From positions 1-39,626 of the forward strand of contig JAGLID010000045.1 of assembly GCA_023143145.1 (NCBI GenBank): a stretch of DNA of 39,626 bases. Reading direction: 5' to 3'. Positions 8,496-27,176 of the stretch are shown here, in pieces. The notes under the pieces are model-generated. The model made no database searches. It worked only from the letters and a program-made list of their open reading frames with translations, and was not told the origin of the DNA. This DNA comes from Minisyncoccota bacterium. Its GTDB lineage: Bacteria; Patescibacteriota; Minisyncoccia; JAHIHE01; JAGLIN01. Within the stretch, counting starts at the first letter, position 1, and every line of letters begins with the position of its first letter. The position numbers and the translations under genes were made by a program.

Positions 8496-10292
8496 CTAAA
8501 TTTTCTTCAATTTAACTCCCAGTTCATCCAGTTGCTCTTTTCTAACTGCGCTTGGACTATCCATCATCAAATCTCTTCCTTTCCCATCTTTTGGAAAGGC
8601 ATAGATGTCGCGAATCGAATCATAATCACAAAGAGTCATCAAAATTCGATCTACTCCAGGAGCACAACCACCATGAGGAGGTGCACCAAATTTCAAAGCC
8701 TTAATCATTCCGCCAAATTTAGCATCCACTTCTTCTTTCGTATATCCAGCAATTTCAAAAGCCTTATACATAATTTTTGGTTTATGATTTCTAATTCCGC
8801 CACTCAAACATTCAAATCCATTCAAAGATATATCAAATTGATTATTGATAATTTCAAGTGGGTCTTTTGATTCAAGTTCCTCAATCCCACCTCTGGGCAT
8901 TGAAAATGGATTATGTTCAAAATCAATTCGACCCTCTTCAATCTCAGAATAGGCAAACATTGGAAAATCAACTATCCAGCACCAAGCAGCCTTTGAATTA
9001 TCCTTAAGCCCAAGTCTTGTGGCACATTCATTTCGCACAGAACCCAAAGCCGAACAAACTGTTTTCCACTTATCTGCACCGAAAAATATAATATCACCAG
9101 AAACTGCTTCAACTTCGCTGGCAATCTCTTTCGTTAAATCATCACCAAGAAATTTCACAATTGGAGACTGAAATTCTCCACCTTCTTTGACAATAATATA
9201 TGCCAATCCTTTTGCCCCTTTTTCCTTGGCAATTTCCGTCAGCTCATCAATTTCTTTTCGAGAAAATTTTGCACCTCCGTCAATTTTCAAAGCATGAACT
9301 GCGCCGCCCTTTTCGACTGTGTCAGAAAAAACACTAAACCCACAACCTTTTATCAAATCTGAAATTGGTTTGATTTCCAAGTCAAAACGTAAATCTGGTT
9401 TGTCCGAGCCATATCTTTCTAATGCTTCTCTCCATGGAATTCTTTGGAAGCTTTTATCCTCATTAAGTGCAACAATTTTCTTTTTACTAAATTTTTCAGT
9501 GATTTCAACAAACAAAGGTTCCATAATCTCAAAAATATCATCTTGCTCCACAAAACTCATTTCCATATCAATCTGATAGAATTCTCCATAGGCCCTATCC
9601 ATTCGTGGATCTTCATCACGAAAACAAGGTGCAATCTGAAAATATTTATCAAGTCCTCCAACCATCAGAAGTTGTTTGAATTGTTGAGGAGCTTGAGGAA
9701 GAGCATAAAACTTTCCTGGGTGAATCCTAGAAGGAATCAAAAAGTCTCTTGCTCCCTCTGGAGAAGAATTGGCCAAAATTGGTGTTTGAACTTCAATAAA
9801 ATCTCTCGTTTGAAAATAATTTCTTACATGTTGAAATAATTGATCTTTAATCTTTAACATTTCCTGCATTTTCTTTCTACGTAAATCAAGAAATCTATAT
9901 TCCAAACGAATTAACTCATTCGCCTCCTGGCCTTTTTCATCATTAATTTCAAAAGGAGGAGTCTCTGATTCCGACAAGACTTCAATTTCATCCGCCTCAA
10001 CTTCGATCTCGCCAGTTCCAAGTTTTGAATTGATCATACCATTAGGTCTTGAAATTACCGTTCCTGTAATTCTGATCACATATTCGGTTCGAATTTTGTC
10101 AGCAGTTTCCCACGCCGATTTTGACACCTCTGGATCAAATGTAATTTGAGTAATTCCATATCGGTCACGCAAATCGATAAAAATCAATCCACCGTGATCT
10201 CTTCTGGAATTCACCCATCCCGATAAAATAACTTCTTGATTTTCTTCTTTTTTTGATAACACTCCGCAAGTATGAGTTCTATATTGTTGCAT
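8496..10292 (-). CDS. aspS: Aspartyl-tRNA synthetase
   Basis: MQQYRTHTCGVLSKKEENQEVILSGWVNSRRDHGGLIFIDLRDRYG, class II motifs, C-terminal GGCAPGVDRILM. Confidence 0.98.
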   Translation of the reverse strand: MQQYRTHTCGVLSKKEENQEVILSGWVNSRRDHGGLIFIDLRDRYGITQITFDPEVSKSAWETADKIRTEYVIRITGTVISRPNGMINSKLGTGEIEVEADEIEVLSESETPPFEINDEKGQEANELIRLEYRFLDLRRKKMQEMLKIKDQLFQHVRNYFQTRDFIEVQTPILANSSPEGARDFLIPSRIHPGKFYALPQAPQQFKQLLMVGGLDKYFQIAPCFRDEDPRMDRAYGEFYQIDMEMSFVEQDDIFEIMEPLFVEITEKFSKKKIVALNEDKSFQRIPWREALERYGSDKPDLRFDLEIKPISDLIKGCGFSVFSDTVEKGGAVHALKIDGGAKFSRKEIDELTEIAKEKGAKGLAYIIVKEGGEFQSPIVKFLGDDLTKEIASEVEAVSGDIIFFGADKWKTVCSALGSVRNECATRLGLKDNSKAAWCWIVDFPMFAYSEIEEGRIDFEHNPFSMPRGGIEELESKDPLEIINNQFDISLNGFECLSGGIRNHKPKIMYKAFEIAGYTKEEVDAKFGGMIKALKFGAPPHGGCAPGVDRILMTLCDYDSIRDIYAFPKDGKGRDLMMDSPSAVRKEQLDELGVKLKKI

Positions 10293-10327: not shown

Positions 10328-10375
10328 CATTTTAGAAACCTAGCTCCGAAGCTTCGGAGCTAAGTTCCTAAAATG
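10328..10375 (-). other. 48-nt inverted repeat (long hairpin) upstream of aspS
   Basis: CATTTTAGAAACCTAGCTCCGAAG|CTTCGGAGCTAAGTTCCTAAAATG; 24 positions, two mismatches that become G.U on the minus-strand RNA. Confidence 0.8.
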
Positions 10376-10386
10376 TTCATATAACA

Positions 10387-10445
10387 AAAACTCCGTTCTT
10401 ATTTAATAAGTGAAAAACAAACTCATTAAATAAGAGCGAAGTTTT
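10387..10445 (-). terminator. Long hairpin terminator upstream of aspS
   Basis: 25-position arms 10387-10411 and 10421-10445, 22 Watson-Crick matches; minus strand followed by GTTTTTG. Confidence 0.7.
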
Positions 10446-10548
10446 ATTGATTATTATTATCTAAGTAATTAATTCTCATATTTTTTGCCATTTTCATTAA
10501 CTATATACATAATAACAAAGATATAAAAAAAGTCAAAGAAAAACACAC

Positions 10549-10630
10549 AGCCTACATCTTTTCAACGTATCTATCCCTGATAAACTCAATCCATTTATAA
10601 TCACGATCATTATTGATTTAAGTAAATAAA
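10549..10630 (-). pseudogene. Decayed duplicate of the argS 3' end
   Basis: About 72% identity by eye to 11424-11508; translates YLLKSIMIVIINGLSLSGIDTLK versus ArgS YLSKSVAITIKNGLDLLGIDTLKKM*. Confidence 0.7.
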
Positions 10631-10637
10631 AAAAGAA

Positions 10638-10664
10638 GCAGAGCCTATATTGGCTAGGCTACTG
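10638..10664 (-). terminator. Terminator after the multiheme protein gene
   Basis: Minus strand GCAGTAGCCTA..TAGGCTCTGC followed by TTCTTTTTTT. Confidence 0.7.
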
Positions 10665-10671
10665 CATTTGT

Positions 10672-11265
10672 TTAGTGGCAAATTCTACACTCACCACTAT
10701 GTTCTCCTCCAGGTCCCTTTCCTGGATTGTCATCATGATGAGATCCATGACAATCATCACAATTTTTATGAAGACTTGTTCCGTGACAAGCTCCACAGTT
10801 TTCCTGATGTATTCCAGAATATCTACTATGGCAAACTATACAACTCCTTTCAGTCGGAGCTGGACTCCCTTTATGGCAAAAAGGATTTATACAGCTGTAT
10901 TCATCAAGAATATCTTTATTATGATGAATCTCTTTTCCATCATGACAGTATTGACATTCATTATGAATGTTTCTGTTCGCTCCGTGACAATCCTCACATT
11001 CACTATGAATGCTTTTTCTACTTCCATGACAATCATCACAATCTTCGTGAAGGCTCGCTATGTGGCAATCTAGGCAATCCTTCTCCATATTATGAGGATT
11101 ACCAACGTCATCTTTGCCAGATTCAACATTACTGCCACTGTTTCCAGTGTCATCAGAACCACTAGGTCCAGGTCCTCTGGAATCACCTTTGCCAGCATCA
11201 ACCGAAACTATGGCAGTCAAGACCAATGACATTAGCACTAGACAAACAATCATTTTTCTATTCAT
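10672..11265 (-). CDS. Exported multiheme c-type cytochrome-like protein (8 CXXCH + 1 CX4CH)
   Basis: Signal peptide MNRKMIVCLVLMSLVLTAIVSVDA; CLDCH, CDDCH, CEDCH, CQYCH, CINPFCH, CIVCH, CGACH, CDDCH, CRICH; second ATG fits the GAGG SD better than the track start at 11271. Confidence 0.88.
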   Translation of the reverse strand: MNRKMIVCLVLMSLVLTAIVSVDAGKGDSRGPGPSGSDDTGNSGSNVESGKDDVGNPHNMEKDCLDCHIASLHEDCDDCHGSRKSIHSECEDCHGANRNIHNECQYCHDGKEIHHNKDILDEYSCINPFCHKGSPAPTERSCIVCHSRYSGIHQENCGACHGTSLHKNCDDCHGSHHDDNPGKGPGGEHSGECRICH

Positions 11266-11282
11266 ACCCATATCCTCTTTTT

Positions 11283-11308
11283 AGAGTATTTCTTAAAAGA
11301 AATACTCT
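11283..11308. promoter_or_regulatory. Perfect 12-bp inverted repeat just upstream of the multiheme gene SD
   Basis: AGAGTATTTCTT-AA-AAGAAATACTCT. Confidence 0.65.
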
Positions 11309-11426: not shown

Positions 11427-13172
11427 CTACATTTTTTTCAATGTATCTATCCCTAATAGATCTAATCCATTCTTTATCGTAATCGCGACCGATTTTGATA
11501 AATAAATTCTAGCTTTAGCAACCTGCATCTCTGATTTTATAATAGGTGTAGAACTATAGAAATTATTATACAAAGAAGCAAGTTCGTAAATATACAAAGC
11601 AATCAAATGCGGTAAATTTTCACGAGCAGCATTTTCAATAGCTTCCGGAAATTTAATTAATTGCCTTAAAATATCTTTTTCCATATCCTCTTTAAGCAAA
11701 CCAAAATCCGGCTTATCCAGAATATTGATTCTGTTTAATCTGTAAGCTCTATTATATTTTTCAACCAATGAATTTATTCTCGCATAAGTGTATTGCAAAT
11801 ACGGTGCGCTATTCCCTTCAAAAGAAAGCATTTTATCCCAGTTAAAAGCAATGTCTGTCAATCTATTCTGCGATAGATCATTATATTTTATAGCTCCAAG
11901 TCCTACAATTTTTGCAATCTTTTTTTTCTCCTTATTGCTTAGCTTGGGATTCTTTTCTTCCACGACTTTTTTTGCGATTTCAGTTGATTTTTTGATAAGC
12001 TCGTCAAGTTTCACCGTCTCCCCTTTTCTGGTTGAAAACTTTTTTCCTTCTTCTCCTAAAACCATACCGAATTTGATATGCTCAATTTGAGTATTTCTAC
12101 AAATACCCAATAATTCAAGCGAGGCGAATAATTTCTGAAAGTGCAATGCTTGTTCATTGGCAACTACATAAAGGATCTTCTTAGCTCGAAGTTTTTCTTC
12201 ACGATACTTTGCCGTCGCAATGTCAGTTGTCGTATAAAGATATGCTCCGTCTGTTTTTTTTATTAAAAATGCGGATAGATTATATTTATCAAGAGCGATA
12301 ACAATTGCCCCTTCGCTCTTTGTCGCAATTTTTCTCTCCAAGGCATCATTCACAACTCTTGAAAGCATTCCGTCATAAAAACTCTCGCCTAAAACATAAT
12401 CAAATTTTACACCTAAAGTTTTATATATCTTATTATAGTCTTTCAGACTTTCCTTAATTAGATATTTCCAAATCTTGATATTTTCGGTGTTTTTCTCTTG
12501 AAGCCTTTTTGTCTCATGTCTTGCAAACTCCTCAAGGTCCTTATTCTTCTCAACTTCTTTGTGAAATCTAACATAGAGTTTTGTCATCTCTTCAATGGGA
12601 TTTTTATCAATCTCTTTCTTGTTTCCCCAATGTTTATACGCGTAAATTAATTTTCCAAATTGAGTCCCCCAATCTCCGATGTGATTGTCACCGATAACCT
12701 TATAACCCAAAAAATTATAAATATTATAAAGTGATTGTCCAATTATAGTTGAACGCAAATGTCCAATATGCATCGGTTTGGCAATGTTCGGAGCTGAATA
12801 GTCAATGACAACAACTTTTTCTTTCCCAATTTCTGATGAACCAAACCTATCTTTCTTTCTCAAAACTTTGCACAAGTTTTGCCTAAGCCGTTTGTCGGAA
12901 ATTTCAAAATTTATAAAACCCGGATTTGCAATCGTAACTCCGCTGAAAATCTCTTTATACTCTGCAATCGTATCAATCTTATTTCTAATTTTCTCCGCAA
13001 TTTCCATCGGATTTTGATTCAACTTCCCCGCCGAAACCATCGCCACATTTGAAGCATAATCCCCGCGCCCCTTCTGTTTTGGCCACTCCACCACAAAATT
13101 AGGAATTTCTATATCCTGATATAAATCCTTTATTGCTTTATTTATAATTTCCTTTATTTCTTTATTTAGCAT
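11427..13172 (-). CDS. argS: Arginyl-tRNA synthetase
   Basis: VIDYSAPNIAKPMHIGHLRSTIIG; C-terminus NGLDLLGIDTLKKM typical of ArgRS. Confidence 0.97.
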   Translation of the reverse strand: MLNKEIKEIINKAIKDLYQDIEIPNFVVEWPKQKGRGDYASNVAMVSAGKLNQNPMEIAEKIRNKIDTIAEYKEIFSGVTIANPGFINFEISDKRLRQNLCKVLRKKDRFGSSEIGKEKVVVIDYSAPNIAKPMHIGHLRSTIIGQSLYNIYNFLGYKVIGDNHIGDWGTQFGKLIYAYKHWGNKKEIDKNPIEEMTKLYVRFHKEVEKNKDLEEFARHETKRLQEKNTENIKIWKYLIKESLKDYNKIYKTLGVKFDYVLGESFYDGMLSRVVNDALERKIATKSEGAIVIALDKYNLSAFLIKKTDGAYLYTTTDIATAKYREEKLRAKKILYVVANEQALHFQKLFASLELLGICRNTQIEHIKFGMVLGEEGKKFSTRKGETVKLDELIKKSTEIAKKVVEEKNPKLSNKEKKKIAKIVGLGAIKYNDLSQNRLTDIAFNWDKMLSFEGNSAPYLQYTYARINSLVEKYNRAYRLNRINILDKPDFGLLKEDMEKDILRQLIKFPEAIENAARENLPHLIALYIYELASLYNNFYSSTPIIKSEMQVAKARIYLSKSVAITIKNGLDLLGIDTLKKM

Positions 13173-13224: not shown

Positions 13225-13497
13225 CTACTCTTCAATACTGTTATCTTTCTTACCAGACTTTGCTACAAAAATTACCATACCAAGTATTATATATAGCAAT
13301 ATGTCTATAATAATTAAGACGATAGAAGCCAATAGGCTCCACCAAAACCAAGCAGTGAATGCTATGGTTAGATTTTCTAACCCTACATAATAGAGCATCA
13401 TAAACATTCCGATTACAACGCCTAAAATTATAATAGCATAGGCAGTCCTATCAGAAATGCATATTATAGCTACTTTTCTTAGATTGTTAATATACAA
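13225..13497 (-). CDS. Small multi-pass membrane protein, unknown
   Basis: TTG start with AAAGGAGG SD at 13505-13512; two or more TM segments. Confidence 0.6.
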   Translation of the reverse strand: MYINNLRKVAIICISDRTAYAIIILGVVIGMFMMLYYVGLENLTIAFTAWFWWSLLASIVLIIIDILLYIILGMVIFVAKSGKKDNSIEE

Positions 13498-13531
13498 ACA
13501 AATTCCTCCTTTCTAAATATTTTATCTACAT

Positions 13532-13798
13532 TTAACTAAAATCTATCACAAACAAGAAAAATGTCAACAGCAATAACAAAAAACTTTCTTCTTCTGGAAT
13601 TATAAGCTCATCACTATAACGCACAGTATCAGATAAATCTTCCATAAATACCATGGCATTCGTAGAAAAATATATTCCTATTATAATACTAAATAATATT
13701 ATAGCAACTAATATAGTCTTATGTTTTTCTAAGTTTATAAGATCAAACATCTTATCAATTTTTTCTGTAATATGTCCAGACAAATTATCGTCCTCCAT
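13532..13798 (-). CDS. Small two-TM membrane protein, unknown
   Basis: ATG with AAAGGAT SD; hydrophobic helices at residues ~27-48 and the C-terminus. Confidence 0.6.
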   Translation of the reverse strand: MEDDNLSGHITEKIDKMFDLINLEKHKTILVAIILFSIIIGIYFSTNAMVFMEDLSDTVRYSDELIIPEEESFLLLLLTFFLFVIDFS

Positions 13799-13927
13799 TC
13801 ATCCTTTCTATTGTTTAATTTCATTTTTCAATGAGCATTATGCTCTTTGCAAAACTGTCAATTATAATTATGATTTACAAATAATTCTCAACCACTATAA
13901 TGGAGATATAAGAAATTAAATTTAAAA

Positions 13928-15088
13928 ATGTCACCTTATACTCATTACTTAGTGCATGATTTTTTTAAGAAAAAAGAATTTAATGAAATATATATTTCTG
14001 TTTTTATTATGACTTTTGCGGAAAGCCTGATTGAAATCTTTATACCAATTTATCTTTTTCAATTAGGATATTCAATCCCCATAATTATATTTTTCTATTT
14101 CTTAGTAAGTTTATTTTTTATCATATTTTCTCTATATGGTGCTAATATTGTTTCTAAGATTGGAGTAAAACATTCAATTCTCATTTCAATACCTTTTTTG
14201 GCTGTCTACTACATTGCCTTAAATTATATTATTTTTTCAAATTTTATATTCTTTGCCTTGCCAGCACTTCTCGCCATACGAATGATTTTCTATAATTTTG
14301 GTTTTCATTTAAACTATATTAAGCATTCAGACAAAGAAAAAAGAGGCAAGGAATTATCTACCATTGGAATTTTGACAACACTTTCGACTGCTACCGCTCC
14401 AATTCTCGCCAGTATTATTATTATCAAATTTGGTTTTGACATGTTGTTTTTAGTTGGAATCATATTATTAATAATTGGAACGATTCCTCTTTTTTTAACA
14501 AAGGATACTTACGAAAGAATTAATATCAATACCAAAAAAACTATAAGCTATATTTTTGATAAAAAAAGCCTTCCTCGCGCAATGAGCTTTACAGGATATG
14601 CGATTGAATCGATTATAGACAGAATTATCTGGCCGATATTTCTAATAATCTTATTGTTAACCGTTGAAAAAGTCGGAACAGTAGTTTCCTTTAGTCTCTT
14701 ATCTTCAATTCTTGTTTTCTATTTAATTGGGAAACTAACGGATAGACAAAACAAAACGAAACTAATAAAAATTGGAACATTTTTTTGTTTTTTCGGCTGG
14801 ATCGGAAGATTGCTTGTATATAATCAATTTACAGTACTATTAGTTGATTCATATAAAAATGTTTCTTCAAAAATTCTTCAACTACCTTGGTCAGCAAAAT
14901 CATATGACATTGCAGCCAAAGAAGGATACTTCAGCTTCATTGTTACAAGAGAAATAATTTTCAACTTGAGTAGAGTGATAATTTTACCTATCATTATGAT
15001 AATATTTTATATTGATTTTTTCCCATTTATTATCACTTTTATTATCGCGGCAATTTCCACTCTTTTATATCCCCTTCTATCCGAATAA
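13928..15088 (+). CDS. MFS-type transporter
   Basis: About 12 TM segments, 386 aa, MFS-like loops (GKLTDRQNKTK). Confidence 0.82.
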   Translation: MSPYTHYLVHDFFKKKEFNEIYISVFIMTFAESLIEIFIPIYLFQLGYSIPIIIFFYFLVSLFFIIFSLYGANIVSKIGVKHSILISIPFLAVYYIALNYIIFSNFIFFALPALLAIRMIFYNFGFHLNYIKHSDKEKRGKELSTIGILTTLSTATAPILASIIIIKFGFDMLFLVGIILLIIGTIPLFLTKDTYERININTKKTISYIFDKKSLPRAMSFTGYAIESIIDRIIWPIFLIILLLTVEKVGTVVSFSLLSSILVFYLIGKLTDRQNKTKLIKIGTFFCFFGWIGRLLVYNQFTVLLVDSYKNVSSKILQLPWSAKSYDIAAKEGYFSFIVTREIIFNLSRVIILPIIMIIFYIDFFPFIITFIIAAISTLLYPLLSE

Positions 15089-15107
15089 TAAATAAATAAA
15101 TACTAAA

Positions 15108-15135
15108 AAATCACAGTGAAGATTCGCTGTGATTT
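15108..15135 (+). terminator. Terminator between convergent MFS and ABC permease genes
   Basis: AAATCACAGTG-AAGATT-CGCTGTGATTT, 11-bp stem. Confidence 0.8.
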
Positions 15136-15140
15136 ATGTT

Positions 15141-15160
15141 TGTGAGGCGTACAGAATTCT
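15141..15160 (-). repeat. Partial decayed copy of the tRNA-Lys 3' end
   Basis: TTTGTGAGGCGTACAGAATTC versus TTTGTGGGGCGTACAGGACTC at the tRNA 3' end (18/21, all three differences transitions). Confidence 0.6.
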
Positions 15161-15194
15161 AATTTATTTTTTTCTATAAGAATTCAAAAAATAA

Positions 15195-16388
15195 TTATTC
15201 ACTTCTCAACGCATCCACGGGGTCAAGACGGCTTGCTTTTAAAGCTGGATAAAATCCGAAAAATACTCCAACAACAACAGAAAAACAAAAACCTATAATT
15301 GGACCTGTCCATGAAAACGCCAATGCCATAACGTCTAATCTTGAAAGTATTGAAATAGCCAATGAGCCAATAATAATCCCGAGTAGTCCGCCAACCATTG
15401 AAAGTGTTACGGATTCCAGCAAAAATTGCCCCAAGATGTCTCCTTGCTTTCCTCCAATGGCTTTTGATATTCCTATTTCTTTTGTTCTCTCCGCGACCGT
15501 AACAAACATAACATTCATAATTCCAATGCCTGACACAAGTAAAACAATAGCTGCTACAGAAGTTAAAAGAAACGTCATAAGTTCGGCTGAATCTTGAGCT
15601 GCTCCAACCATAGCCCCGGCATCCATTATCTTAAAATCATCCTCTTGACTATCTTTCAGTCCATGTTCTTCTCTCAAAGCTAACACAAGTTCTTCTGACG
15701 CAATCTCAATATTTTCTACACCATCAGCTACTGTAAATATCATTACAGAAGCATTACTTCCTAAAATACTTTTTTCTGCTGTAGTATTTGGCAGATAAAT
15801 AGCATCATCTAAAGAGTTTTTACCCATACTTCTTCCAGTTTCTTCAACTATTCCAATGACTTCAATCATTTTACCATTTATTTTTATAGTTTGACCAATT
15901 ATTTTATCCTTTTCAAAAAATAGTGTTTCTACTATCTCGCTTCCAAGGACCGCGACTCTTTCATTGCCCTCCACATCTTCATTGGTTATCAATCTCCCTT
16001 CGCCAATATCTATACTAGACATTTCAAAATAATTACTCTCAATTCCCATTATATTGAAAGAACCACTTTCAGCTTCAAAAGAAACAGCCATACCACCTTG
16101 TATCACAGCCGTAGCTTTTGGAATATGAGGACAATTTTCTATAATAACTTTAGAGTCAGTGGTTTTCAGCTTAGAACTTTCAATTTTTCCTTTCACTGAC
16201 ATGACAATAATTGAATCGGCAGACAATCCTTGAAATTGTTCATCTACTGCTTTTTGCGCGCCTTGTCCAATTGCAAATACAGCAATAACAGTAGAAACCC
16301 CAATAATTATCCCAAGCATTGAAAGAAATGTCCTTGTTTTATTTGCAAGTAAAGATTCAAAAGACATTTTTATAATTTCTAATTTCAT
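15195..16388 (-). CDS. MacB/FtsX-type ABC transporter permease
   Basis: LANKTRTFLSMLGIIIGVSTVIAVFAIGQGA, periplasmic MacB_PCD-like domain, C-terminal FtsX TMs. Confidence 0.95.
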   Translation of the reverse strand: MKLEIIKMSFESLLANKTRTFLSMLGIIIGVSTVIAVFAIGQGAQKAVDEQFQGLSADSIIVMSVKGKIESSKLKTTDSKVIIENCPHIPKATAVIQGGMAVSFEAESGSFNIMGIESNYFEMSSIDIGEGRLITNEDVEGNERVAVLGSEIVETLFFEKDKIIGQTIKINGKMIEVIGIVEETGRSMGKNSLDDAIYLPNTTAEKSILGSNASVMIFTVADGVENIEIASEELVLALREEHGLKDSQEDDFKIMDAGAMVGAAQDSAELMTFLLTSVAAIVLLVSGIGIMNVMFVTVAERTKEIGISKAIGGKQGDILGQFLLESVTLSMVGGLLGIIIGSLAISILSRLDVMALAFSWTGPIIGFCFSVVVGVFFGFYPALKASRLDPVDALRSE

Positions 16389-16389
16389 A

Positions 16390-17097
16390 TTAGTAATCTG
16401 AAGTTAATTTATAATTGTTGTCCACTACTTTTCCATCTCGCAGGTAAATTATTCTATCGGCATATTTTGCGACTTCTGAAGTATGAGTAACCATAATGAT
16501 TGTTTTATTTTTCTTTTTTAGACCAATAAATATTTTCATTATTTCAAGACCAGATTTAGAATCAAGTGCGCCAGTCGGTTCGTCTGCTAAAATTATATCA
16601 GGATTATTTATAAGAGACCTGCAAATAGAAACGCGTTGTTGTTGTCCGCCAGAAAGCTCCGTCGGTTTATGATTTGCTCTGTCCTCCATATTAACACTTT
16701 TCATAAGACCCATAGCTCTTTGCTCTCTGATATTTTTTGCTTCTCCTGAATATAGCGCTGGCAAAGCAATATTTTTTAATGCACTAAGTCGAGAAAACAA
16801 ATTAAACTGTTGAAATACAAAACCCATTTTTTTATTTCTAATATAAGCTAGTGTATAATCGTCTCTAACTTCTCCAATATTTTCTCCATTCAAAAAATAT
16901 TCTCCATCAGTTAAAGAATGGAGGCACCCTATAATATTTAATAAAGTTGTTTTCCCGCCACCAGATTCTCCCATTAACGCCACAAATTCTCCTTTTCTAA
17001 TATCAAGATTAATACCGTTTAGAACTGGCACTTCTTCGTCATTAGAAAGGTAATATGACTTATGAACATTTTTTAGTTGTATTAATAGTTCTTCCAT
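16390..17097 (-). CDS. MacB/LolD-type ABC transporter ATP-binding protein
   Basis: GESGGGKTTLLNIIG Walker A, LSGGQQQRVSICRSL signature, DIILADEPTGALD Walker B; likely start MEELLIQL. Confidence 0.96.
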   Translation of the reverse strand: MEELLIQLKNVHKSYYLSNDEEVPVLNGINLDIRKGEFVALMGESGGGKTTLLNIIGCLHSLTDGEYFLNGENIGEVRDDYTLAYIRNKKMGFVFQQFNLFSRLSALKNIALPALYSGEAKNIREQRAMGLMKSVNMEDRANHKPTELSGGQQQRVSICRSLINNPDIILADEPTGALDSKSGLEIMKIFIGLKKKNKTIIMVTHTSEVAKYADRIIYLRDGKVVDNNYKLTSDY

Positions 17098-17140
17098 AAC
17101 TTTTAATTTAATTGGAACTCTCTCACTTAATATCATTCTA

Positions 17141-19009
17141 TTAATATATTATTTTCTCACCAGCATCTAGACCTTTTATAATTTCTACATTCTTACCATC
17201 TGTAAATCCGGTTGTAACTGGCAACCACTCTTCGTTAATATTCAATACAGAAGGAACATCATTAATATTTCTAACCGCGCTAACCGGAACAACTAAAACA
17301 TTTTTAGCTTCAGCCGTTACAAAATCAACAAACACAGTCATACCTTCTCTTATTTGATTGTCTGCCTTGTTCATTATTACAATACGAACTAAATATGTAA
17401 CAATTCCTTGACTATTTGTTTTTGAAGTAAGTGAAATAAAACTAACTTCCCCATCAAGCATTAAGCTGTCCATTGCCTCAAAAGTAGCATAAACAGTTTG
17501 CCCGATTTTGATTTTGTTAATATCAGCTTCTTCAATATCCACTTCAATAAACAAAGTATCATTATTTATAATAACTGCTACCGGGTCAATATTTCCACTA
17601 TCTACTATAATATCACCTGTTTTATAATTAAGTCTTGCCACTTCACCATCAATCGGAGATACGATAGTTGCGTTTCCTAATTCATTTTGAGATTTTTCAA
17701 GATTTACAGAAGCGCTAGTTAATCTTGAGCGTGCAGAAGCTTTTTCCGCTTCAGTCAAAGGAGCTAATAGATTATTGTAATCTCGTTTAATTTGTTCAAC
17801 ACTTAATTTTTTACTTTCTACATTAGCTTCTGAGTTTTCAATGCTCCTCTTGGCATCAGCTTTAACATTGACCAAATCTCTTTTAGCATCTTCATAATCA
17901 ATAATATAATCATCAAGACGATCCCTCACATCATCTACTGCTTCAATTTTTGTGTTTATAGATGTAATTTTAGTATTAACGGTTGCTCTATTTGTGTTAA
18001 TTGTTGATATGAAACTGTCAAGTTCTGATTGTGAAAAATCAGATGAAGTAATTGTTGCTTCAAGCATTAAACTCATATAGTACAAATGCGTTTCAAATTT
18101 CTCCAAAGCAAAAACCGCTTGATTTGCCGCCTCGTCAATCTCACTATAAGAACTATTAAAATTTAATAACAGCACTAAAGAATCAAGTTTTTGTAACTCG
18201 TTCCGAGACACTAAATAGCTACTTTTTGCTTGATTTAAAAAAGACATATTTAACGCACCTAAAACATATTCAAAATCATCATTTATAGACTTATCGTCTA
18301 TTCCTACAATTTCATCTGATTCATTTAAGATATTATCTAAGCTTATATTAATTGATTTTATTGTATCCACTAAGCTTTCATAAGCATCACCTACATCTTC
18401 ACTACTAAGCTCATCTTGATTGTCGTCTAATTTCTCTTTAGCGTCATTTATTGCATCTTCAGCATTCTGGATACTTTCTTCAGCAGATTGCCTAGTTCCT
18501 TCCAAACTAATCTCAGCTTGATTTAATAATATTTCCGCTGAAGTAATTCTGTCTTTGGCATTAGCAATTTCCTCATCTGTAGCTCCATCCATTGTTTGAT
18601 TATACTCCGCTAAAACTGATAAATAATTTGAATATGCAGTACGAACATTCAACTCCAGTATTTCTGTTTTGACAGTAGCAATTTTATCACCCTTGCTGAT
18701 TTTATCACCCTCTTTAACAAATACTTCTTCTATCTCCAGATTATCACCGCCAACAGAGAAAGATAATTCAACTCCATCTTCTGCAATCACCTTACCGTCT
18801 GATTCAATAGAGATTTTCAAACTGTCTTTTTTCACTGTCCATTCTTTTTGAGAAACAGCTGTTTCTTTTGTATCTTTTTTGTCAAAATAAAAATAGGCAG
18901 AAATTAAAACTAAAAGAATACTACTTAAAATTATTATTTTCTTTTTAGTTATTTTAAATTTTCCACTATTGCCTCTAGATTTTTTACTTTCTTCTAATAT
19001 AGAACTCAT
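17141..19009 (-). CDS. HlyD/MacA-like membrane fusion (adaptor) protein
   Basis: N-terminal TM, split lipoyl/barrel-sandwich halves around a long coiled-coil, NATIVSPIDGEVARLNYKTGD. Confidence 0.92.
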   Translation of the reverse strand: MSSILEESKKSRGNSGKFKITKKKIIILSSILLVLISAYFYFDKKDTKETAVSQKEWTVKKDSLKISIESDGKVIAEDGVELSFSVGGDNLEIEEVFVKEGDKISKGDKIATVKTEILELNVRTAYSNYLSVLAEYNQTMDGATDEEIANAKDRITSAEILLNQAEISLEGTRQSAEESIQNAEDAINDAKEKLDDNQDELSSEDVGDAYESLVDTIKSINISLDNILNESDEIVGIDDKSINDDFEYVLGALNMSFLNQAKSSYLVSRNELQKLDSLVLLLNFNSSYSEIDEAANQAVFALEKFETHLYYMSLMLEATITSSDFSQSELDSFISTINTNRATVNTKITSINTKIEAVDDVRDRLDDYIIDYEDAKRDLVNVKADAKRSIENSEANVESKKLSVEQIKRDYNNLLAPLTEAEKASARSRLTSASVNLEKSQNELGNATIVSPIDGEVARLNYKTGDIIVDSGNIDPVAVIINNDTLFIEVDIEEADINKIKIGQTVYATFEAMDSLMLDGEVSFISLTSKTNSQGIVTYLVRIVIMNKADNQIREGMTVFVDFVTAEAKNVLVVPVSAVRNINDVPSVLNINEEWLPVTTGFTDGKNVEIIKGLDAGEKIIY

Positions 19010-19036
19010 ATAATGTTCAGTTAAAAGTTAAATAAG

Positions 19037-19606
19037 TTAATTAATTATCACAAAATTTGCAATATTCTTGTCCGTGATATCTTTATCGGTCCAAACTAAA
19101 AGCATTTTATCTTTGACAATATCATTTAGTGTAGCTTCAACCATTACTCCGTCTTCATTTTTGAGTATTTTTATTCCAACTGGAATAATAATTTTTTCTT
19201 CTCCTGTACTCATACTTTTCAACATTTCTAACCTTGCGTCAACATCATCATCAGTAGTATTTAATTGAGTACCTCCCATGCCCATGCCCATACCCATGCC
19301 ACCACCCGCACCTGATGATGGTCTTTTCTCTTTCTCATCATCTATATCTTCAACGCTTTCACTTTCTTCAAGTCCATTGTTTTCACCAGACATTTGTCTT
19401 TCAATCTCTAAAATCGTTACTTCATTACCAATAATAGTTTTTACAATCCCCGAGAGATTTGCCTTTTCTTCAGGCTTTTCAAATCCAGCAAATCTACTAT
19501 TCTCTGATGTTTGATTATTCTCATTTTGCTTATTACTATTTTGCCATAGATACCCTAATAAAACAGAAACGAATAACAGACTTATTATTGCTATAACTTT
19601 TTTCAT
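19037..19606 (-). CDS. Membrane-anchored protein with GMGMGMGMGG stretch, unknown
   Basis: N-terminal anchor, OB-like ANLSGIVKTIIGNEVTILEIER; directly upstream of the adaptor gene. Confidence 0.75.
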   Translation of the reverse strand: MKKVIAIISLLFVSVLLGYLWQNSNKQNENNQTSENSRFAGFEKPEEKANLSGIVKTIIGNEVTILEIERQMSGENNGLEESESVEDIDDEKEKRPSSGAGGGMGMGMGMGGTQLNTTDDDVDARLEMLKSMSTGEEKIIIPVGIKILKNEDGVMVEATLNDIVKDKMLLVWTDKDITDKNIANFVIIN

Positions 19607-19646
19607 AATAGTTTTTTATTAAATTATTATTTTTTATACTCTGATT

Positions 19647-20201
19647 TTATATTTTAAACATTTTTTTAAAATATGCCCAGTGCCAGAAAGTATGAAATAT
19701 TGAAATTACAAACATCGCGATGCCGATTTCAACATGCCAAAATAAAGTGTTAAATGGCAAAGAAATTGTTATACCAAAATTAATTTCTATAATCAATAAA
19801 ATCCCCAACAAACCGGAAATTAAAAAAGTAATTAGCAGTAAAAAATTCCAGATCTTTCTGTGATTGATAATACTGATAATTTTTTTCTTAGATAAAATAT
19901 GAGTAATAAAATATATCAAAATTAAAAACAACGAAATTGGTATGAGATGATAATTTGTTTCAGATTGCTTATTATTTATTATTAAATCTTTATCTTCTAT
20001 TTGAGTATTTATTATTTCAGTATTCCTGTCTTCTGGTGCGGGCTGGGAATGGTCGCATATTTCATCGCCGTCTGTATCAATATATCTATTGCAATCTCCA
20101 GGATAAGGAGAATTAACCTCGCCATAAGGACAATTATCCCAAGCCAAAACCGTTGTTGGAATTGAAATTATCAAAAGTAAAGCAAAAATTATTTTTTTCA
20201 T
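19647..20201 (-). CDS. Exported/membrane protein: [32 protein letters not shown] domain plus DUF4405/cytochrome b561-like His-rich TM domain
   Basis: Signal peptide, four predicted TMs, [30 protein letters not shown]; start overlaps upstream stop by 4 nt. Confidence 0.7.
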
Positions 20202-20617
20202 ATTGCATTTTGATTTTTTGTTTCTTCCGCGAGATCTTTAATTATCGCTGGAGAAAATTTATATTCCGCGTCTCTTATTTCTTCCAAAATTGTCTCAACA
20301 GTGTAATTCCCCTGCAAATCAAATTCAGCTATAATTTCTAACAAAAGAACATCCGCATTAATTTCCCAAAGATCAGCCACTTTTTGCACAGTCAAAGCTT
20401 TCATCGCGCTTCCTTCAATTTCCATAAAATGATCATGCTCATGTTCTTCGTCGTCTTCATGTTCTTCATGCTTTTCGTTCTCAGAAATAATCTCTTTTGC
20501 CGTATCCTCTTCAGATATATTTTTCTGCGTTGCCAGTTCTATCGTTGAACACTCAATAGTATATCCCACAATTACGCCTAAAACAATAGCAATTATTATT
20601 AAAATTATTTTTTTCAT
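20198..20617 (-). CDS. Membrane-anchored His/acid-rich protein, possible metal binding
   Basis: N-terminal TM then [19 protein letters not shown] and [28 protein letters not shown] helical domain. Confidence 0.7.
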
Positions 20618-20692
20618 ATAATATTTATATATTTTTTATACTGTAACCAAATAAAGAAGAGGTGCCTCTCCTTTTTCGGCTTTAGCTAATTA

Positions 20693-20923
20693 TTACAAAT
20701 TATCGCAACTACCATCACTATTAGCATTAATAAATTCCCCGCCTTTATTTTGTCCCTTGTTTTCAGCGCTCATTTTTCCACTTCGTTCTCCGTCAACGTT
20801 GTTCTGTCCTTTATATTTAGCTCCAACTTTTTCGCCATTACTAGTTCTCAGACCAAGTTCTTTTCTAATTGCGTCCGCACTGACAACATCTCTTGCTTGA
20901 CCTAAATTGTAAATAAATATCAT
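20693..20923 (-). pseudogene. Possible N-terminally truncated ORF ending in a DGxCDN-type motif
   Basis: ...RKELGLRTSNGEKVGAKYKGQNNVDGERSGKMSAENKGQNKGGEFINANSDGSCDNL; no signal peptide or SD seen. Confidence 0.35.
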
Positions 20924-21137
20924 TTCATAATTTCGCCAAAATGTGTGCCAGATGTGCTTTTAAAAAGATGAGGAGTAGAATACTATGCTGAAGCTTTTTT
21001 AAAACGCAGATAACGCACAAACCAGATGAAATTTGAAAGGTTATTTATCTACAACGACTTAGTGCTTATATATATTATTACAAATGAAATTCAAATTTAT
21101 TTCATTATTTATTTTTCCACTTCGAAAAATAGCAAAA

Positions 21138-21231
21138 AACCCGCTTAATTAAAGCAAGTTCTATTTATTGCAAGGATTGGTTTGCAATCTAGCAGGAATG
21201 AGTCTGTAACTCGTTTCTTGTCAGGAACTTG
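21138..21231 (-). ncRNA. Candidate structured RNA with terminator
   Basis: P1 CAAGTTC/GAACTTG (21225-21231 / 21155-21161), inner perfect ATTGCAA/TTGCAAT hairpin, terminator ACTTGCTTTAATTAAGCGGGTTTTTT overlapping P1. Confidence 0.35.
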
Positions 21232-21242
21232 TTTTGTAATTT

Positions 21243-21764
21243 TTATAAAATTCTATAAATACAACGAGTTCTTCCAACATACCAAACTTCTTTGAAATAA
21301 TTTTTACAGGAACTCCAGCCAATATCTTTAGTCGCATCTATTGGAAAATCTCCCATTTGATCATCAAAAAGTAAAAAAATATTATTCATTTCTTTCTCAT
21401 CTTTTCCTTGTTTTTTATACTTTTCTATTTTTGCATTAAGGGCTTTTAAGACCGGTCTCATATCATGTCGGTCTCGTATACTAAATGGTATAGATTCATT
21501 CCGTGTATTAAGTGGTGTAGATTCATAATATTTTTTCGATATTTGAGTTTGAAAACATCCGGTTTTTATATAATCTGCAACCGTAACTTGAATTTTTAGT
21601 TTCTTTCCATTTTTAAAATTAACAAAAACATCAACTACATCTTGTATTTCATTTGGTTTGATTTTAGCATCTTTTTCTCTTTCATTATTTTCCTGACAAT
21701 AATATGACAAAAAACGCTTTACGCAATTTTTTTCTTCTTTCTCTTGGATTTCGCTTCCCTTCAT
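21243..21764 (-). CDS. Hypothetical protein, possibly PD-(D/E)XK-like fold
   Basis: DVVDVFVNFKNGKKLKIQVTVAD plus C-terminal NNIFLLFDDQMGDF strand; assignment by motif shape only. Confidence 0.6.
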   Translation of the reverse strand: MKGSEIQEKEEKNCVKRFLSYYCQENNEREKDAKIKPNEIQDVVDVFVNFKNGKKLKIQVTVADYIKTGCFQTQISKKYYESTPLNTRNESIPFSIRDRHDMRPVLKALNAKIEKYKKQGKDEKEMNNIFLLFDDQMGDFPIDATKDIGWSSCKNYFKEVWYVGRTRCIYRIL

Positions 21765-21788
21765 AAATTTTTCTTATTTTTTTATTCA

Positions 21789-22985
21789 CTATTCCAATAT
21801 TATACCTGTTATATAAGATTCCCGATCAAAACTATTTATTTCATAGATAGAATCTGCATCAAAACCTAATTTTTTCAAAACGCTATTATTTTTTATCAGT
21901 CGTTTTTGCCCAAAATCTCCCTGCGGATATAATCTGTAGATTTTATCATCACCCACGGCACGAACTAATTCAGATGTTTTAAAAGAATTAAGTGTTGATT
22001 GACCTACATTCATCACATCTTCCCATTTTAAATGACCGTAGTTATTGAAAATAGAAGGATTTAGAATTAGTCGTTTGAATTTTTTTGAACCGACATATTT
22101 AACAATGTAAATATCATTATTATTTGCTGTTTTAATTAGAGCTCCTTCGGAAATTTCAATGATTATAGGGATGGCACTTTTAACATTAGAACTTGATTTT
22201 ACTACATCGGGATACCTTTCCTTAGTAATTTGAGCGAATGTCTTCTTGCGATTAGCAGGATCAAGTGTAAGAGATTTAATAACACTATAATCAGCAATCT
22301 CTTTATATTCAGGCATTTCATCTAGTGTTCTATAAAATTCTTTGCTGAACAAAATATTGATTCTGATCATTTTTTCAATAGATGCTTCTGTGCACACTTC
22401 TTTATCTATATCAAATTTACTACCAATTCCTCTTTTTTCTTCGCAATATTCATTCATTTTTATTTGAACATAAACATCTTGTCCGACATCTAATAAAAGT
22501 TTATCATCTTCACTTAGACTAGATTCAAATCTGTCTTTAATAATTTTATCTAGACATGATTGGTAATTTTCTTCAGCTATTTCAGAAAGATTGATACCAG
22601 ATCTGCAAGAGTCCAGCTCAATCTGATTGAGTGTTGAGCAATCATCACTGATTAAATTTCCCATACTTTTTCTAAAACTACAATTAGCTCTTATTTCATT
22701 TACATAATCTAATTTTCTCTGATAGTCTGATTCTTCTCTACAAATTAAAGGCAAGTCATCAACCAAAAAAGATGAACAAGAATTAAATTTACACTCTTCC
22801 GCATCTGTAAAATTAACCGAACTATTAACCCAGCCGTCATTACAAACAACTTTCCCATAAGAAGAAATGCTATTACAATTAACTCCGCCATAATAAGAAC
22901 AAGCGCCACTGGTTGCGTCAGCGGAAAGTGGAATTATAAATAACAAAGAAAATGCAAAGAAAATAAATTTATTTAGATATTTCAT
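21789..22985 (-). CDS. Secreted Cys-rich protein, unknown
   Basis: Signal peptide; SGACSYYGGVNCNSISSYGKVVCNDGW motif; C-terminal repeat-like VRAVGDDKIYRLYPQGDFGQKRLIK. Confidence 0.75.
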   Translation of the reverse strand: MKYLNKFIFFAFSLLFIIPLSADATSGACSYYGGVNCNSISSYGKVVCNDGWVNSSVNFTDAEECKFNSCSSFLVDDLPLICREESDYQRKLDYVNEIRANCSFRKSMGNLISDDCSTLNQIELDSCRSGINLSEIAEENYQSCLDKIIKDRFESSLSEDDKLLLDVGQDVYVQIKMNEYCEEKRGIGSKFDIDKEVCTEASIEKMIRINILFSKEFYRTLDEMPEYKEIADYSVIKSLTLDPANRKKTFAQITKERYPDVVKSSSNVKSAIPIIIEISEGALIKTANNNDIYIVKYVGSKKFKRLILNPSIFNNYGHLKWEDVMNVGQSTLNSFKTSELVRAVGDDKIYRLYPQGDFGQKRLIKNNSVLKKLGFDADSIYEINSFDRESYITGIILE

Positions 22986-26048: not shown

Positions 26049-27176
26049 TCAAATTCCTTCTTCTTTCAATTTTTCAAATAATTTTTTTTGACTCTTAGAA
26101 AGTCTTTCTGGTATCACAACCCGAACAACAATGAACATATCTCCCTTTCCTCTTCCTTGAAGATGAGTAATTCCTTTTTCGTTTAATTTAATTATCTTTC
26201 CGCTCTGAATGCCTGAAGGAATTTTCAATTTGACCTCATCTTGTAGGGTTGGAATATTCACCTTGTCTCCGAGCACGGCTTGCGAAATAGATATCTGTAA
26301 ATTATATATAATGTCATCGCCTTTTCTTTCGAAGAAAGAATGCTGTTTTACACGCACTGTAATATATAAATCACCAGCAACTGAATTTCTTTTTCCAGGA
26401 CGAAAACCGACTTCACCTTGACCCGACAAACGAATTGTCTGTCCGTCAGCAATTCCTGCGGGAATTTTAACTTTGATAGTTTTATTTTGCTTCGTCTTTC
26501 CATCGCCTCCACAAACCGAACATTTTTTATCAAATGTTTCTCCTAAACCCTTACAATCTGGACATATTTCATTCTGAGCAAAAGTTCCCAGAATGGTTCG
26601 TCTTTGTTTCGTCACTTGACCACTTCCGCTACAGGTTTTACAAGACTCAACTTTACTGCCCTTTTCTGCTCCGCTTCCATCGCAAGATGAACATAAAATT
26701 GAAATATATATATTTATATCTTTTTCAGTTTCGACTACCGCCTCTTCAAGAGTAATTTCAATATCAACAGATATATCATTTCCCTTTCCTTGATTCTGGC
26801 TTTGATCTCTTCCCTTACCTCCAAAAATATCGCCAAAAATATCGCCAAATCCTCCACCATCTCCACCATCTCCACCAAATTCAAAATTAAATCCATTCTG
26901 ACCACCTCCTTGAAAACCAGAAAAATCAAAACCTCCAAATCCTTGCCCTCCACCTGCCCCAGCCTGATCAAATCCTGAACCAAATTGATCATATTGACCT
27001 CTTTTTTGTTTATCAGAAAGCACTTGATAGGCTTCATTTATTTCCTTAAACTTCACCTCATCTCCTCCTTTTTTATCTGGATGATGTTTGTGAGCCGCCT
27101 TTCGAAAAGCCTTCTTGATTTCATCATCACTTGCATCTTTGGAAACTCCTAAAAGTTTATAATAATCTTTTGCCAT
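26049..27176 (-). CDS. dnaJ: Chaperone protein DnaJ
   Basis: J domain HHPDKKGGD, Gly/Phe-rich region, four CxxCxGxG-type zinc repeats. Confidence 0.97.
   Translation of the reverse strand: MAKDYYKLLGVSKDASDDEIKKAFRKAAHKHHPDKKGGDEVKFKEINEAYQVLSDKQKRGQYDQFGSGFDQAGAGGGQGFGGFDFSGFQGGGQNGFNFEFGGDGGDGGGFGDIFGDIFGGKGRDQSQNQGKGNDISVDIEITLEEAVVETEKDINIYISILCSSCDGSGAEKGSKVESCKTCSGSGQVTKQRRTILGTFAQNEICPDCKGLGETFDKKCSVCGGDGKTKQNKTIKVKIPAGIADGQTIRLSGQGEVGFRPGKRNSVAGDLYITVRVKQHSFFERKGDDIIYNLQISISQAVLGDKVNIPTLQDEVKLKIPSGIQSGKIIKLNEKGITHLQGRGKGDMFIVVRVVIPERLSKSQKKLFEKLKEEGI

What the first reader, a model, noticed from the sequence alone, without database searches (positions are those of the whole stretch)
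10672..11271. Compact nine-heme-motif exported protein in a CPR-like genome
About 170 mature residues carry eight CXXCH and one CX4CH (CINPFCH), mostly as repeated HxxC-xx-CH units (LHEDCDDCH, IHSECEDCH, IHNECQYCH, LHKNCDDCH), ending exactly on CRICH. Patescibacteria generally lack respiratory chains and cytochrome c maturation, so a dense multiheme protein would be unexpected. It could be acquired electron-transfer or surface cargo, or a non-heme metal binder. No Ccm or Ccs gene is visible in this window.
Basis: partly seen in the sequence, partly recalled or inferred. Interest (0 to 1): 0.75.

Follow-up and report, generated by a model that had tools for sequence, protein, structure and literature searches.

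The report
Orphan nine-heme-motif exported protein
A small bacterium of a group that normally lacks cytochromes carries one exported protein packed with nine heme-type binding motifs, apparently picked up from another microbe, but no machinery for attaching heme was found, so whether it carries heme or another metal is unknown.

Summary
The ORF at 10672-11271 (-) encodes a signal peptide, a disordered-looking linker, and eight CXXCH plus one CX4CH motif in 134 residues, about one per 16 residues. All 18 mature cysteines lie in the motifs, and 11 further His lie near them. Shuffles of the same composition never exceed 3 CXXCH.

The contig belongs to its small-genome lineage: flanking genes are syntenic with family members, and the ORF has native codon usage. 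Misbinning is therefore unlikely.

No homolog was found in all 15 family and 19 order genomes held, in 387 class or 384 phylum genomes, in phages or in plasmids; one pattern scan of GTDB genomes gave only a spurious hit. No Pfam or NCBIfam family matches. It is the only CXXCH array in the genome. CcmF/CcmC/CcsA, ResB and ferrochelatase models find nothing (92% complete genome).

New here: a degraded argS 3' tail lies just downstream, closer to another genus's argS than to the intact argS upstream. This suggests argS and this gene arrived together and displaced the resident argS.

Best reading: an acquired multiheme c-type cytochrome design; heme loading is unproven (about 0.5). Main rival: an exported non-heme metal binder (0.33). 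CPR multiheme cytochromes have one published precedent.

The parts
10672..11271 (-). ORF of the nine-motif exported protein, 199 aa (likely start ATG at 11265)
11194..11271 (-). signal peptide, residues 1-26 (MGMNRKMIVCLVLMSLVLTAIVSVDA), predicted cut after VDA
   Evidence: read from sequence; AF2 gives its only confident helix at residues 5-25
11095..11193 (-). Gly/Ser/Asp-rich linker, residues 27-59, no Cys
   Evidence: read from sequence; low pLDDT
10675..11094 (-). array of eight CXXCH and one CX4CH with flanking His, residues 60-199
   Evidence: codon-pattern hits
10642..10660 (-). terminator-like hairpin followed by a T-rich run, just after the stop codon
   Evidence: 2 found in the region, 0.3 expected
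10546..10630 (-). degraded 3' tail of a second argS copy (last ~24 codons, frameshifted)
   Evidence: 83% nt identity to the G004 argS tail, 72% to the intact argS of this contig
10379..10537 (-). aspS upstream region conserved in relatives, where resident sequence resumes
   Evidence: 76-80% nt identity to G009, G002, G013
11427..13172 (-). intact argS, inferred to have arrived with the nine-motif gene
   Evidence: Pfam; homologs
8496..10292 (-). aspS, resident flanking gene, syntenic in relatives
   Evidence: Pfam; synteny

Best explanation
A horizontally acquired, exported protein of multiheme c-type cytochrome design. Each CXXCH (and the single CX4CH) would hold one covalently bound heme, with a nearby second His as the other axial ligand (bis-His). 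That would give a short wire or electron store of up to nine closely packed hemes on the outer face of the cell or released from it. Shown: export signal, motif array, uniqueness, native contig, argS remnant beside it. Inferred: heme binding, electron transfer, joint arrival with argS. Missing: any maturation or heme-synthesis gene. If it is loaded, the genes lie in the unassembled ~8% or belong to an unrecognised system, and heme comes from neighbours.
For: Nine of nine Cys pairs are followed directly by His, including the CX4C pair; by established knowledge CX4CH also occurs in cytochrome c3 of Desulfovibrio. All mature Cys are used and 11 non-motif His are available for nine sites. The protein has a signal peptide, as c-type cytochromes require. 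Of five CXXC pairs in 13 other window genes none is followed by His. The best solved-structure match is cytochrome c554, though weak (E 0.017). The argS tail remnant supports import of the gene. A CPR genome with four multiheme cytochromes is published (PMC5220378).
Against: No PF01578 (CcmC/CcmF/CcsA) in the genome and none above cut-off in 290 phylum genomes, while 8 of 14 controls ring above cut-off. No ResB, no ferrochelatase. No cytochrome partner: no other CXXCH array in the genome. No cytochrome family model matches. No homolog, so no evidence of conservation of the motifs. About 16 residues per motif is denser than solved small multiheme cytochromes that I know of (about 23-27 per heme), from memory.
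Confidence: 0.5

Rival explanations
1. An exported non-heme metal-binding or thiol protein: each H-x2-C-x2-C-H unit is a Zn, Cu or Fe site, and the protein stores or sequesters metal or buffers redox outside the cell.
For: No heme attachment or ferrochelatase gene. The best Pfam match is the DnaJ zinc-finger domain (E 0.24), and DnaJ also shows up in the PDB (E 0.31); weak phylum hits look DnaJ-like (E 0.004-0.008). Units CDDCHGS and CEDCHGA resemble DnaJ CxxCxGxG. The protein is acidic and His-rich, with few hydrophobics.
Against: DnaJ's GxG spacing and paired-CXXC arrangement are absent; the number of motifs is odd; His after the second Cys is kept in nine of nine pairs, including CX4CH, a constraint expected for heme; the protein is exported. 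No zinc family reaches its cut-off.
Confidence: 0.33
2. A recently imported cytochrome gene carried as passenger cargo with argS: the apoprotein is made and exported, but is never loaded and has no function in this cell.
For: Single genome in the phylum sample, next to an argS remnant that marks an insertion; no maturation genes.
Against: The reading frame is intact, has a plausible ribosome site and its own terminator-like hairpin, and codon usage equals the host's (-0.915 versus -0.907 +/- 0.039 expected), so it is either long resident or from a host of similar composition.
Confidence: 0.13
3. Assembly or binning artefact: the gene belongs to an ordinary cytochrome-rich organism.
For: Metagenome-like assembly in 168 contigs with 3.9% estimated contamination; no homolog in the family.
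Against: Genes on both sides are syntenic and 54-94% identical with family genomes; the family-conserved aspS leader resumes about 130 bp after the stop codon; codon usage matches.
Confidence: 0.04

Closest known systems
Multiheme c-type cytochromes (cytochrome c7/PpcA, PF14522; cytochrome c554; Geobacter CxxxxCH...CXXCH proteins)
   Same: Exported; repeated CXXCH, one CX4CH followed by CXXCH; His available for the second axial position
   Different: Below every family cut-off (PF14522 9.6 bits against 24.8); denser array; no Ccm/Ccs in the genome; no cytochrome neighbours. Likeness to the Geobacter CxxxxCH...CXXCH domain is from memory and was not reported by the Pfam search at E 10.
Multiheme cytochromes of the Parcubacterium GWA2-38-13 (PMC5220378)
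   Same: Multiheme-motif proteins in a reduced-genome lineage
   Different: There they sit with a HAO-like protein, a Rieske/cytochrome b complex and other respiratory genes; here a single orphan gene between tRNA synthetase genes. I could not compare the sequences.
DnaJ central zinc-finger domain (PF00684)
   Same: Repeated CxxCHG-like units; weak similarity E 0.24
   Different: Exported; lacks GxG; nine units instead of four; His fixed after the second Cys; far below cut-off (12.1 against 32.7 bits)

Membership tests
c-type multiheme cytochrome | Several CXXCH/CXnCH motifs, Cys count matching | tested here: met
   8 CXXCH + 1 CX4CH, 18 of 18 mature Cys in motifs
c-type multiheme cytochrome | Export across the membrane | tested here: met
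   Signal peptide read from sequence, confident helix at residues 5-25
c-type multiheme cytochrome | Maturation system (System I or II) in the genome | tested here: not met
   No PF01578 or PF05140 in a 92% complete genome
c-type multiheme cytochrome | Match to a cytochrome family model over its cut-off | tested here: not met
   Pfam and NCBIfam
c-type multiheme cytochrome | Covalent heme and bis-His ligation | not testable with these tools
   Needs expression and spectroscopy; AF2 model uninformative (pLDDT 40)
DnaJ-type zinc finger | Four CxxCxGxG repeats | tested here: not met
   12.1 bits against a 32.7 cut-off; GxG absent on reading
DnaJ-type zinc finger | J domain in the same protein | tested here: not met
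   No J domain match in P0001; the window's DnaJ-like ORF is at 26049-27176

The most novel reading that the evidence does not exclude
A nine-heme cytochrome, at about one heme per 16 residues, works on the outside of a reduced-genome (possibly episymbiotic) bacterium that has neither heme synthesis nor any known maturation system. Heme would be taken and attached by an unknown route or with help from the host, so the cell would pass electrons to or from a partner.
Probability: 0.1. Interest if true: 0.85.

Novelty: new variant of a known kind. Interest (0 to 1): 0.45.

Why it matters
If it is loaded with heme, a bacterium from a lineage thought to be fermentative and heme-free would have an extracellular electron carrier, and would need either host-derived heme and maturation or an unknown heme-attachment route. 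It would also be an unusually compact heme array. If it is not loaded, it is a clear example of how CXXCH counting can over-call cytochromes, and a possible new exported metal-binding array. Either answer can be had with one expression experiment.

Tried and rejected
Homolog search: the genome-contig scan returned one locus, L002 (Rhodospirillaceae), which on reading is a spurious match with a single HNECQYCH-like stretch in a frame without an array. Phylum hits at E 0.004-0.008 are weak CxxCHG matches or signal-peptide regions in 356-425 aa frames, with no CXXCH array, and are read as DnaJ-like. PF14522 weak hits in the phylum are not multiheme proteins on reading; one is a ribosomal-protein-L24-like ORF. 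Three scans of viral contigs failed because the machine gave no answer, so that collection is untested. Plasmids and phages: no match. AF2 single-sequence model: uninformative, so no fold search was run. Recent tandem duplication of the 14-residue unit was considered and not supported: nucleotide identity between units is no higher than their amino acids imply. A closer donor for argS was not found: family argS are 64-79% identical. Possible electron partner genes at 19647-20617 match no redox family.

Full report
OBSERVATION. The ORF at 10672-11271 on the minus strand encodes 199 residues. It has a signal peptide (residues 1-26), a Cys-free linker and an array with Cys-His motifs starting at residues 66, 78, 92, 106, 127 (CX4CH), 144, 159, 171 and 195. 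Spacing between motifs is 12-24 residues, about 16 on average. All 18 mature Cys are in motifs; 11 further His are available, four of them exactly at HxxC. In 20,000 composition-preserving shuffles the maximum number of CXXCH was 3. Genome-wide it is the only CXXCH array.

IS THE CONTIG NATIVE? The window is contig C109 of a 1.28 Mb genome, 92.2% complete and 3.9% contaminated. The order uvrB, dnaJ, a large exported protein, SPFH protein, argS, aspS, CYTH, gatB is wholly or partly kept in family members, at mostly 54-94% protein identity for the conserved genes. In the sister genome G007 the order from dnaJ to gatB and beyond is kept. Codon usage of the ORF equals that of its neighbours. Misbinning is unlikely.

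DISTRIBUTION. No homolog in the other held genomes of its family (15 searched, own included), in 387 of its class including the 19 held of its order, or in 384 of its phylum (weak CxxCHG or signal-peptide matches only). The GTDB-wide pattern scan gave one spurious locus. Plasmids and phages gave none. Viral contigs could not be searched. No Pfam, NCBIfam or PHROG family matches significantly.

HOW IT GOT THERE. Between the gene and aspS lies a degraded argS tail (10546-10630). It is frameshifted and keeps only about 24 codons. It is 83% identical to the argS tail of G004 (another genus of the family) and only 72% identical to the tail of the intact argS 0.8 kb upstream. A duplicate of the intact argS should resemble it most, so I infer that a resident argS was displaced by an incoming argS plus the nine-motif gene. 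The gene's own terminator-like hairpin (10642-10660) ends just before the remnant, and sequence shared with relatives upstream of aspS continues after it. The evidence is about 75-85 bp, so this is a moderate inference. No closer donor argS was found.

HEME OR NOT. For heme: nine of nine Cys pairs followed by His, one CX4CH, export, enough second-ligand His. Against: no CcmC/CcmF/CcsA-type protein, no ResB and no ferrochelatase in the genome; none of 290 phylum genomes reaches the PF01578 cut-off, while 8 of 14 control genomes do; no genome in that sample reaches the cytochrome c7 cut-off. Sequence similarity does not decide: cytochrome c554 E 0.017 and cytochrome c7 E 1.1 against DnaJ zinc finger E 0.24-0.31. 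The AF2 model without cofactors has pLDDT 40 and says nothing. I put heme-type design with possible loading at 0.5, non-heme metal binding at 0.33, inert passenger at 0.13, artefact at 0.04.

LITERATURE. A Parcubacterium with a HAO-like protein (9 hemes), a decaheme and two tetraheme cytochromes beside respiratory genes is described in PMC5220378, so multiheme proteins in the radiation have precedent; a search of that paper's text for 'maturation' gave no occurrence. PMC4429474 lists Zn-binding and iron-sulfur proteins among common false positives of CXXCH searches without a membrane helix; its false positives with three motifs were RecJ proteins. The present protein, with nine motifs and a signal peptide, lies well outside that class.

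VERDICT. A real, single-genome, probably acquired protein of multiheme cytochrome design in a genome where no way to mature it was found. Interesting and easily tested, but not demonstrated to be a cytochrome.

Noticed in passing
10387-10445: Inverted repeat upstream of aspS (AAAACTTCGCTCTTATTTAATGAGTTT...AAATAAGAACGGAGTTTT) conserved in position and sequence in several family genomes, possibly a terminator or an aspS leader element.
   Followed up: partly
10328-10375: 48-base near-perfect palindrome CATTTTAG...AGCTCCGAAGCTTCGGAGCT...CTAAAATG just upstream of aspS, also upstream of aspS in G004 (about 92% identical).
   Followed up: no
13225-22985: About 10 kb between argS and the SPFH gene that is not found between these genes in the family contigs compared, where they lie about 1-2.4 kb apart; it carries a MacAB-like exporter with a large HlyD-type protein and several unassigned small proteins. 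Only the MFS gene has a counterpart, in G007.
   Followed up: partly
19647-20617: Overlapping pair: a His/Glu-rich single-helix protein and a signal-peptide membrane protein with [33 protein letters not shown] and several His near membrane helices; no family match above cut-off. Could be a membrane redox or metal protein.
   Followed up: partly
11283-11308: Perfect 10-base-pair inverted repeat (AGAGTATTTC/GAAATACTCT) between argS and the nine-motif gene, just before its ribosome-binding site.
   Followed up: no
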